From positions 862,680-926,679 of the forward strand of contig CP130741.1 of the NCBI GenBank assembly GCA_030586155.1: a stretch of DNA of 64,000 nucleotides, written 5' to 3'. The stretch is from Eubacteriaceae bacterium ES3. GTDB taxonomy: Bacteria; Bacillota; Clostridia; Eubacteriales; Eubacteriaceae. Each line of letters starts with the position of its first letter. The first letter of the stretch is position 1. This document shows, piece after piece, positions 24,251-57,400 of the stretch. The notes under the pieces are model-generated. The model saw only the letters and a list, made by a program, of their open reading frames with translations, had not been told where the DNA came from and made no database searches. A program made the position numbers and the translations under genes.

Positions 24251-24391
24251 ATGAAGCCAGGCAAAGAAAAAATAGAAGAGTCCCATGCATTCAAGTGTAA
24301 CTTGAAAATGCATGGGACTCTTCTATTTTTTCTTTATCGGGCGAAGCCCGATATGAGTTGTGGAGACGGCCACAACGAATAGCCTGGCTGA
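24251..24391 (+). repeat. Four-helix junction element, site A copy 1
   Basis: Starts AATGAAGCC like the other sites. Outer stem GCCAGGC (24256-24262) with GCCTGGC (24382-24388). The long hairpin at 24263-24335 has two 29-base arms plus an inner CAAGT/ACTTG stem. The third hairpin is ATCGGGC-GAA-GCCCGAT (24336-24352). The fourth, GTTGTGG/CCACAAC (24357-24376), is flanked by GA on each side. The long hairpin ends in CTATTTTTTCTTT and probably terminates pyk. Confidence 0.8.
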
Positions 24392-24600
24392 GGTAAGTAT
24401 AACGAACACTGCAAATACCGAGAGCCATGCATTCAAGTGTAACTTGAAAATGCATGGGACTCTTCTATTTTTTCTTTATCGGGCGAAGCCCGATATGAGT
24501 TGTGGAGACAGCCACAACGAATAGCCTGGTTGAGGTAAGTATAACAAACAAAGCAAATACCAAGCCCCATGCATTCAAGTGTAACTTGAAAATGCATGGC
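24283..24600 (+). repeat. 142-bp tandem repeat, 2.2 copies, containing the site A element
   Basis: The unit beginning CCATGCATTCAAGTG starts at 24283, 24425 and 24567, exactly 142 bases apart. The two full copies differ at only a few bases. The third stops after its 34-base hairpin, right at the stop codon of the minus-strand lipoprotein gene. The region 24246-24602 holds nothing else. Confidence 0.93.
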
Positions 24601-30838: not shown

Positions 30839-30975
30839 TACCTATCCAGAGAGGTGGAGGGACAGGCCCGATGAAACCCGGCAACCAGCATATGCATGGT
30901 GCCAATACCTGCACAAATGTGCAATGATGGGATGTTTTAAAGTAATTTAAACCCCATTTTTTAATGGGGTTTTCT
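30839..30975 (+). promoter_or_regulatory. SAM-I (S-box) riboswitch with terminator, upstream of metK
   Basis: The core AGAGAGGTGGAGGGAC, GGCCCGATGAAACCCGGCAA and the later GGTGCCAATACCTGC match the S-box consensus. The closing stem CCTATC (30841-30846) pairs with GATGGG (30926-30931). A terminator AACCCCATT/AATGGGGTT with TTTTC follows at 30949-30974. SAM binding is expected to stop transcription before metK, giving feedback on SAM synthesis. Confidence 0.95.
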
Positions 30976-33667: not shown

Positions 33668-33797
33668 AAAGCCGTGCAAAATTAGAGCCGGCCTCCCTGA
33701 CAGGAGAAAGTTATTTATCCTGTCAGGGAGGCCGGCTCTAATTTTATAGGGCGAAGCCCTAAACGAGGTGTTTGGAAAACACCGAGTGCAGCACGGC
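33668..33797 (+). repeat. Four-helix junction element, site B (single, cleanest copy)
   Basis: Outer stem GCCGTGC (33671-33677) with GCACGGC (33791-33797). The long hairpin 33678-33745 has perfect 28-base arms. Third hairpin TAGGGC-GAA-GCCCTA (33747-33761). Fourth hairpin GGTGTTT-GGA-AAACACC (33767-33783) lies between GA and GA. It begins 5 bases after the M23 peptidase stop, so its long hairpin may end that transcript. Confidence 0.8.
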
Positions 33798-36999: not shown

Positions 37000-37036
37000 A
37001 GAACAGGAGAAAGAATCATGATTCTTTCTCCTGTTT
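37000..37036 (+). terminator. Terminator after ftsEX-peptidase operon
   Basis: AACAGGAGAAAGAATCAT is mirrored by ATGATTCTTTCTCCTGTT, followed by TTGCG. It lies just before the site C element. Confidence 0.75.
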
Positions 37037-37047
37037 TGCGTGAAAAA

Positions 37048-37174
37048 TGAAGCCGTGCGTAAGCTGTCGCCAATGATTTGTTTTGAAAGCGCGTTTTCAA
37101 AATAAATCATTGGCGACAGCTTACATAGGGCGAAGCCCGCGACGAGGTGAAGCATAGCGGAACCGAGTGCACGG
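37048..37174 (+). repeat. Four-helix junction element, site C copy 1
   Basis: AATGAAGCC start; outer stem GCCGTGC (37052-37058) with GCACGGT (37169-37175). The long hairpin 37059-37124 has about 30-base near-perfect arms. Third hairpin GGGC-GAA-GCCC (37128-37138). Fourth hairpin GGTGAAGC-ATA-GCGGAACC (37146-37164), with three non-Watson-Crick purine pairs in the middle, again lies between GA and GA. Confidence 0.75.
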
Positions 37175-37292
37175 TCTTACATAGGGCGAAGCCCGCGACG
37201 AGGTGAAGCGCAGCGAAACCGAGTGCACGGCCAAGTATAGGGCGAAGCCCGCGACGAGGCGCAGCAATCTCAATATAACAAACTGCAAATAA
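37119..37292 (+). repeat. 56-bp tandem repeat of the 3' part of the site C element, 2.7 copies
   Basis: The unit from CTTACATAGGGCGAAGCCC to GAGTGCACGG occurs at 37119-37174 and 37175-37230, then in shortened form at 37231-37271. The tail TATAACAAACTGCAAATA (37274-37291) also follows the site A element (24398-24417, TATAACGAACACTGCAAATA), showing common origin. Confidence 0.88.
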
Positions 37293-54741: not shown

Positions 54742-54861
54742 AACTATACCTCCTGAAAATTAAAGATCTTTTTTAAAATAAATTGATGAATCAAAAATGA
54801 ACCATGTATAAAATCAAACCGAGCACAACTCGGCTCCGCACGGCTTTACTTTTCGCGAATA

Positions 54862-57227: not shown

Positions 57228-57240
57228 TAGTGAGACTAAC

Positions 57241-57400
57241 TAAATAGGGCAAACTTACTGAAAAGTAAGGACGCAAAACTACAGGGTCTAAATAATTTAT
57301 TACATGACAGCCAGTTGCTTAAAATGCTATACAAATGAGCTTTTATTTGTATAGGTTTGAATTTAAGGCAGCTGCAAAGTTGCCTTTATTTATTTTTTAG
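57241..57400 (+). promoter_or_regulatory. c-di-GMP-I (GEMM) riboswitch with terminator, upstream of the flagellar operon
   Basis: AGGGCAAACTTACTGAAAAG, GTAAGGACGCAAAACTACAG, GGTCTAA and GACAGCCAGTTGC match the class I aptamer. A terminator AAGGCAGC/GTTGCCTT (57365-57386) with a T-rich run follows. The aptamer 3' strand CAGTTGCTTAAA (57312-57323) can pair instead with TTTAAGGCAGCTG (57362-57374), which is the terminator's left arm. Ligand binding should therefore free the terminator: an OFF switch. Confidence 0.88.

What the first reader, a model, noticed from the sequence alone, without database searches (positions are those of the whole stretch)
33678..33745. Very long perfect hairpin arms whose sequence is different at each copy of the element
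The second helix has 28 perfect pairs at B, 29 at A and about 30 nearly perfect at C, yet the arms share no sequence between sites. Random drift would break such arms, so each seems recently made or repaired by an inverted-copying process. At A and B the hairpin directly follows the stop codon region of the gene and could act as its terminator. Perfect arms with unrelated sequence inside a conserved frame are unusual for ordinary terminators.
Basis: seen in the sequence. Interest (0 to 1): 0.6.

Follow-up and report, generated by a model that had tools for sequence, protein, structure and literature searches.

The report
Terminator-seeking RNA element with swappable hairpin
In the bacterium Acetobacterium a small mobile RNA-shaped repeat sits right behind gene ends; its frame is conserved, but one long perfect hairpin of fixed length has a different sequence at almost every site, and both arms change together.

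Summary
The hairpin at 33678-33745 (copy B) has 28 perfect pairs; A and C have 29 and 31, and their arms are unrelated. It is helix P2 of a four-helix element (P1-P4) that Rfam does not contain, in a complete Acetobacterium genome. All 19 genus genomes searched carry the family: 2-9 hits in most (the copies read are mostly behind 5S rRNA), 51 in this genome and 25 in its nearest relative, G012. Copy C is a clean insertion behind a gene's terminator; three other species are empty there. At A and B, 16 of 16 more distant congeners have an ordinary terminator, so P2 probably acts as the terminator here. P2 is constrained in pairing and length (62-73 nt, mostly 64-68), not in sequence. Non-Watson-Crick pairs are rare and are G·U rather than A·C (30:5), so RNA is under selection. 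At seven orthologous sites shared with G012, four show arms diverging in step; at three both arms are unrelated although frame and flank stay alike. Compensated indels and two exact loop inversions point to inverted copying or recombination between arms. What moves the element is unknown.

The parts
33671..33797 (+). Copy B of the element: P1 (33671-33677 with 33791-33797), P2, P3, P4
   Evidence: RNA fold is a four-way junction, z -14.4; frame repeated genome-wide
33678..33705 (+). P2 5' arm of B (28 nt)
   Evidence: unique in the genome
33718..33745 (+). P2 3' arm of B (28 nt, U-rich end); inferred terminator of the upstream peptidase gene
   Evidence: perfect complement of the 5' arm; ordinary terminators at this place in 16 other species
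33746..33761 (+). P3 hairpin of B, ATAGGGCGAAGCCCTA
   Evidence: invariant core GGGCGAAGCCC, 20 exact copies in the genome
33762..33790 (+). P4 hairpin of B, ACGAG...CGAGT
   Evidence: covariation in the family
24256..24388 (+). Copy A, directly 3' of pyruvate kinase; P2 arms 24263-24291 and 24307-24335; P1 is GCCAGGC/GCCTGGC (compensated against GCCGTGC)
   Evidence: orthologous copy in G012, ordinary terminators in 16 other species
24427..24531 (+). Partial tandem copy of A (truncated 5' arm, full 3' arm, P3, P4)
37052..37175 (+). Copy C, inserted behind the terminator of the second peptidase gene; P2 arms 37059-37089 and 37094-37124
   Evidence: empty site in G012, G015 and A. woodii
37176..37262 (+). 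Two further P3-P4 units in tandem behind C, the second truncated
37003..37037 (+). Ordinary terminator and T-run directly upstream of C, i.e. the insertion target
   Evidence: conserved in the empty sites
54805..54858 (-). Vestigial copy D (P1 only, P2-P4 lost) behind the terminator of the glycyl-tRNA synthetase leader

Best explanation
It is a family of non-autonomous mobile repeats that encode a structured RNA: a four-way junction of P1 (closing stem), P2 (long perfect hairpin), P3 (GGGCGAAGCCC) and P4 (G.A-flanked hairpin). Shown by comparison: the element inserts directly behind intrinsic terminators in the sense orientation; an apparently older set sits behind 5S rRNA; the number of copies rose in this species and its nearest relative. 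P2 is selected in the transcript for uninterrupted pairing and a fixed length of about 31-33 bp, while its sequence is free. Inferred: where no other terminator remains (A, B and the 5S-linked copies), P2 is the terminator; behind a regulated leader terminator it is only a stable hairpin in the leader. Inferred: the arms stay paired through selection with G.U intermediates, helped by template switching or recombination between the arms, and now and then the whole hairpin is exchanged while the frame stays. The enzyme that moves the element was not identified.
For: Frame and copy number. Insertion and empty sites: site C and the ileS leader, present in 2 and absent in the others whose leader could be read. 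Terminator replacement at A and B. Length 62-73 nt, most 64-68. Selection on RNA: G.T over A.C 30:5, p = 2e-5; P4 junction pair C-G 29, T-A 8, T-G 3, C-A 0, Fisher p = 2e-6; covariation score 0.285 against 0.129 +/- 0.026, 0 of 500 shuffles. Arms change together. Inverted copying: loop inversions and compensated indels. P2 has about 3.5% non-standard pairs in its outer 22 bp, P1 about 14%.
Against: If P2 terminates transcription, P3, P4 and the 3' strand of P1 are rarely transcribed, yet they covary; the family needs read-through or another RNA stage that was not shown. No transcript data. No mobilising enzyme: this genome has no reverse transcriptase hit, its RAYT loci are not flanked by the element and no longer element with the same ends was found. 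The simple terminator scan does not call P2, because its T-run lies inside the stem. The three sites with unrelated arms could be independent insertions.
Confidence: 0.6

Rival explanations
1. The arms evolve only by ordinary point mutation and compensatory selection on an RNA stem; no inverted copying is involved, and the dissimilar arms reflect age.
For: G.T excess; T-A / T.G / C-G series in the 5S-linked copies and only transition-type double changes in the closest pairs; flank divergence of about 20% allows many changes.
Against: Two exact 12-nt loop inversions, indels mirrored in both arms, transversion-type double changes with very few mismatch intermediates, and arms unrelated at 3 of 7 sites where the frame is 83-85% alike.
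Confidence: 0.3
2. P2 is a cassette that is replaced whole: gene conversion between copies, or repeated insertion at the same terminator, swaps hairpins inside a conserved frame.
For: Unrelated arms at ileS, the 368-kb T-box site and the 213.6-kb site between two species with 76-91% identical upstream flank; groups of copies at different sites share arms.
Against: Four orthologous sites show gradual change instead; the B arm has no second copy in the genome that could have been its donor, and no donor was seen for A or C among the copies read.
Confidence: 0.3
3. The repeat is selected as folded DNA (a MITE or single-strand transposon end), and pairing is a property of DNA transposition, not of RNA.
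For: P1 forms terminal inverted repeats of up to about 20 bp; the element is mobile and mostly in one orientation per replichore.
Against: On the sense strand G.T is six times commoner than A.C in P2, and the P4 junction allows T-G but never C-A. No transposase with matching ends was found.
Confidence: 0.12
4. The arms are guide or antisense sequences that match other targets, so they differ because the targets differ.
For: Variable arms of fixed length in a fixed frame recall spacers (inference only).
Against: The B arm matches nothing else in the genome at up to 3 mismatches; a 17- and an 18-mer of A and B have no exact match in 2.9 million viral contigs. The C 18-mer matches 4 contigs that were not examined.
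Confidence: 0.04

Closest known systems
SPRITE and BOX repeats of Streptococcus pneumoniae (PMC3049150)
   Same: Small interspersed repeats predicted to fold if transcribed. SPRITE is terminator-like with a stem much longer than usual; BOX is modular with tandem inner units and base-paired terminal repeats.
   Different: Sequence not compared. Here the family combines a conserved frame with a long perfect hairpin whose sequence is not conserved and whose length is, and it sits directly behind terminators.
Group IIC (bacterial class C) introns (PMC8919778)
   Same: They insert immediately behind rho-independent terminators.
   Different: They need a reverse transcriptase and a ribozyme core; this genome has no RVT_1 hit and no group II intron family was reported in the window.
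Template-switch mutation at hairpins (PMC8794818)
   Same: Creates and corrects perfect stems and inverts loops in one event.
   Different: Described there for rRNA and microRNA genes; here the evidence is a bacterial dispersed repeat, and selection on RNA is also visible.
REP/REPIN elements with RAYT (from knowledge)
   Same: Extragenic hairpins, often 3' of genes.
   Different: The RAYT loci read lack this element; one carries another palindrome with GGGGACGGTTCC.
Intrinsic transcription terminators
   Same: A-tract, stem, U-tract layout of P2 at A, B and the 5S-linked copies.
   Different: Stem of about 30 bp, embedded in a conserved mobile frame; many copies sit behind a separate terminator.

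Membership tests
Intrinsic terminator | G+C-containing stem-loop followed by a U-rich tract | tested here: inconclusive
   At A and B the U-rich tract lies inside the base of the stem; the scanner that wants a free tail reports none. Comparative replacement of ordinary terminators supports the role.
Intrinsic terminator | RNA 3' ends in vivo | not testable with these tools
   No transcript data.
MITE (DNA transposon derivative) | Terminal inverted repeats shared with an autonomous transposon, and target-site duplication | tested here: inconclusive
   Inverted ends exist (P1), but no longer element with the same ends was found; the empty site at C is too diverged to show a duplication.
Group II intron | Reverse transcriptase in the genome | tested here: not met
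   No RVT_1 hit in this genome with 51 copies.
Group II intron | Insertion directly behind a terminator (class C) | tested here: met
   Site C, ileS leader.
REP/REPIN | Copies flank the RAYT gene | tested here: not met
   G000 2.491-2.498 Mb holds no copy.
BOX / SPRITE | Sequence homology to the pneumococcal repeats | not tested
   Only the architecture was compared.
Any Rfam RNA family | Match at the gathering score | tested here: not met
   below threshold the best matches are generic hairpin (microRNA) models.

The most novel reading that the evidence does not exclude
The element carries a replaceable hairpin cassette: a dedicated or hijacked inverted-copying process regenerates or exchanges both arms at once, at fixed length, while the frame is kept, so that each genomic site holds its own long perfect double-stranded RNA.
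Probability: 0.15. Interest if true: 0.75.

Novelty: new variant of a known kind. Interest (0 to 1): 0.5.

Why it matters
It gives a natural series of about 70 hairpins with the same frame and length but different sequence, some at orthologous sites. That makes an old question testable: how long RNA stems stay perfectly paired while their sequence changes, and how much is due to selection and how much to template switching. It also shows a mobile element that can take over the role of gene terminators.

Tried and rejected
Rfam at gathering and permissive thresholds: no family. Group II intron mobilisation: no reverse transcriptase hit in this genome. RAYT/REP: the RAYT loci read are not flanked by the element. 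A longer autonomous element with the same ends: not found. Arms as guides or spacers: nothing for A and B; four viral matches for an 18-mer of C were not examined. Automatic test that copies lacking an upstream terminator have more T at the base of P2: only p = 0.045 with a crude classifier, so not relied on. Transversion-type double changes include alignment-shift artefacts (L019/L066, L061/L068, part of L052/L070 and L018/L051) and are used only as a hint. Two papers on Acetobacterium and on bacterial stem-loop families mention nothing like it in the passages read.

Full report
WHAT IS THERE. At B (33678-33745) a stem of 28 perfect pairs is enclosed by GCCGTGC/GCACGGC (P1) and followed by ATAGGGCGAAGCCCTA (P3) and an ACGAG-hairpin-CGAGT (P4). 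RNA folding returns exactly this four-way junction with z = -14.4. The same frame is at A (24256-24388) and C (37052-37175). GGGCGAAGCCC occurs 20 times in the 3,392,449-bp genome. A covariance model of P3-P4 finds 49 places at E <= 1, and a broader model finds 51 at E <= 0.01.

THE VARIABLE HELIX. Over about 70 distinct copies in the genus, P2 spans 62-73 nt in nearly all cases, mostly 64-68. Its tip is often AAGCTCGCTT or a relative; the shaft differs. In the outer 22 pairs 1465 are Watson-Crick, 35 G.T, 5 A.C and 13 other. P1 of the same copies has 811, 65, 21 and 49, so P2 is kept far better than P1. A transition in one arm yields G.T or A.C with equal chance at the DNA level; after removing repeats of the same context the counts are 30:5 (p = 2e-5). 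My scan penalises A.C more than G.T, which may add some bias. The strand on which G.T is tolerated is the sense strand of the upstream gene. P4 agrees: its junction pair is C-G in 29, T-A in 8, T-G in 3 and never C-A, and the helix covaries beyond all 500 shuffles.

WHERE IT SITS. The genus is Acetobacterium: I recognised G017 as A. woodii by its length of 4,044,777 bp, from knowledge. All 19 genomes have copies at E <= 0.01. Most have few, and many of the copies read follow 5S rRNA. In the family at E <= 0.001, 6 of the 21 genomes outside the genus have one or two hits; two of these were seen to have the hairpin (L343, behind 5S rRNA, and L344). C is a clean insertion: G012, G015 and A. woodii have the same terminator there and no element. 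In the ileS leader only this genome and G012 have it, directly behind the T-box terminator, among the genomes whose leader could be read. At A and B no other terminator remains, and 16 of 16 more distant congeners have an ordinary terminator at that place (read by eye). One copy near 10 kb provides the stop codon of the gene upstream.

HOW THE ARMS EVOLVE. L019/L066: arms 96% alike, one nucleotide lost from both arms. L018/L051: 78%, four nucleotides added at the base and four lost inside, in both arms, length kept at 67. L012/L095 (A): 78%, changes matched except one mismatch. L045/L093: 70%, eight differences in the outer 22 positions, all matched. L009/L083 (ileS), L008/L084 and L043/L085: arms no more alike than shuffled sequence, frame 83-85%, upstream flank 76-91%. 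Two tandem arrays hold loops that are exact reverse complements of each other beside the same 3' arm: CAAGCGTGTTTG and CAAACACGCTTG in G012 (L088), CAAGCGAGTTTG and CAAACTCGCTTG in this genome (L005). Loop inversion and multiple simultaneous compensations are described as footprints of template switching (PMC8794818). Recombination between inverted arms would also invert a loop. The 5S-linked copies show the slow route as well, with T-A, T.G and C-G states at the same pair.

MECHANISM. Shown: mobility with insertion behind terminators, RNA-strand selection, fixed length, coupled arm change. Inferred: terminator function at A and B, template switching or arm recombination as a contributor, exchange of whole hairpins. 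Open: the mobilising enzyme, and why P3 and P4 covary if P2 ends the transcript.

COMPARISON WITH KNOWN KINDS. It works like a terminator-like interspersed repeat (SPRITE) built into a modular structured repeat (BOX) (PMC3049150), with the target choice of group IIC introns (PMC8919778). It fails the tests for group II intron (no reverse transcriptase hit) and REP/RAYT and matches no Rfam family. I rate it a new variant of a known kind, the small structured interspersed repeat.

Noticed in passing
L303, L304, L306, L312, L313, L317, L320, L326, L336, L340 (flanks of rRNA operons in the genus): A second hairpin family with conserved frame GTAGGAACAAGGA-[CATC...GATG]-GACAGTTTAGCCGGTTCAACCGCTAACGCTCC, whose arms also differ between copies.
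   Followed up: no
L282, L283, shortly behind pyk: In two species the pyk terminator carries a structured insert of about 60 nt in its loop.
   Followed up: no
G000 about 2.748-2.751 Mb (L098, L107): An IS66-like element appears inserted inside one copy of the element; G012 has the uninterrupted locus (L093).
   Followed up: partly
window 54805-54858, minus strand: Vestigial copy (P1 only) behind the leader terminator of glycyl-tRNA synthetase.
   Followed up: partly
window 37128-37262; L018/L109: The right half (P3-P4) is amplified in tandem, three units at C and five at the 1.974-Mb copy.
   Followed up: partly
L001 1126-1425: The element supplies the stop codon of a 99-aa gene (PTS IIB-like by eye) ending ...VKILREK.
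   Followed up: partly
L361 4499-4549: A 257-aa RAYT-like gene is adjacent to another palindromic repeat, AACACAAGGGGACGGTTCCCTTGTGTT.
   Followed up: no
window 30839-30933 and 57238-57322: SAM and c-di-GMP-I riboswitches.
   Followed up: no
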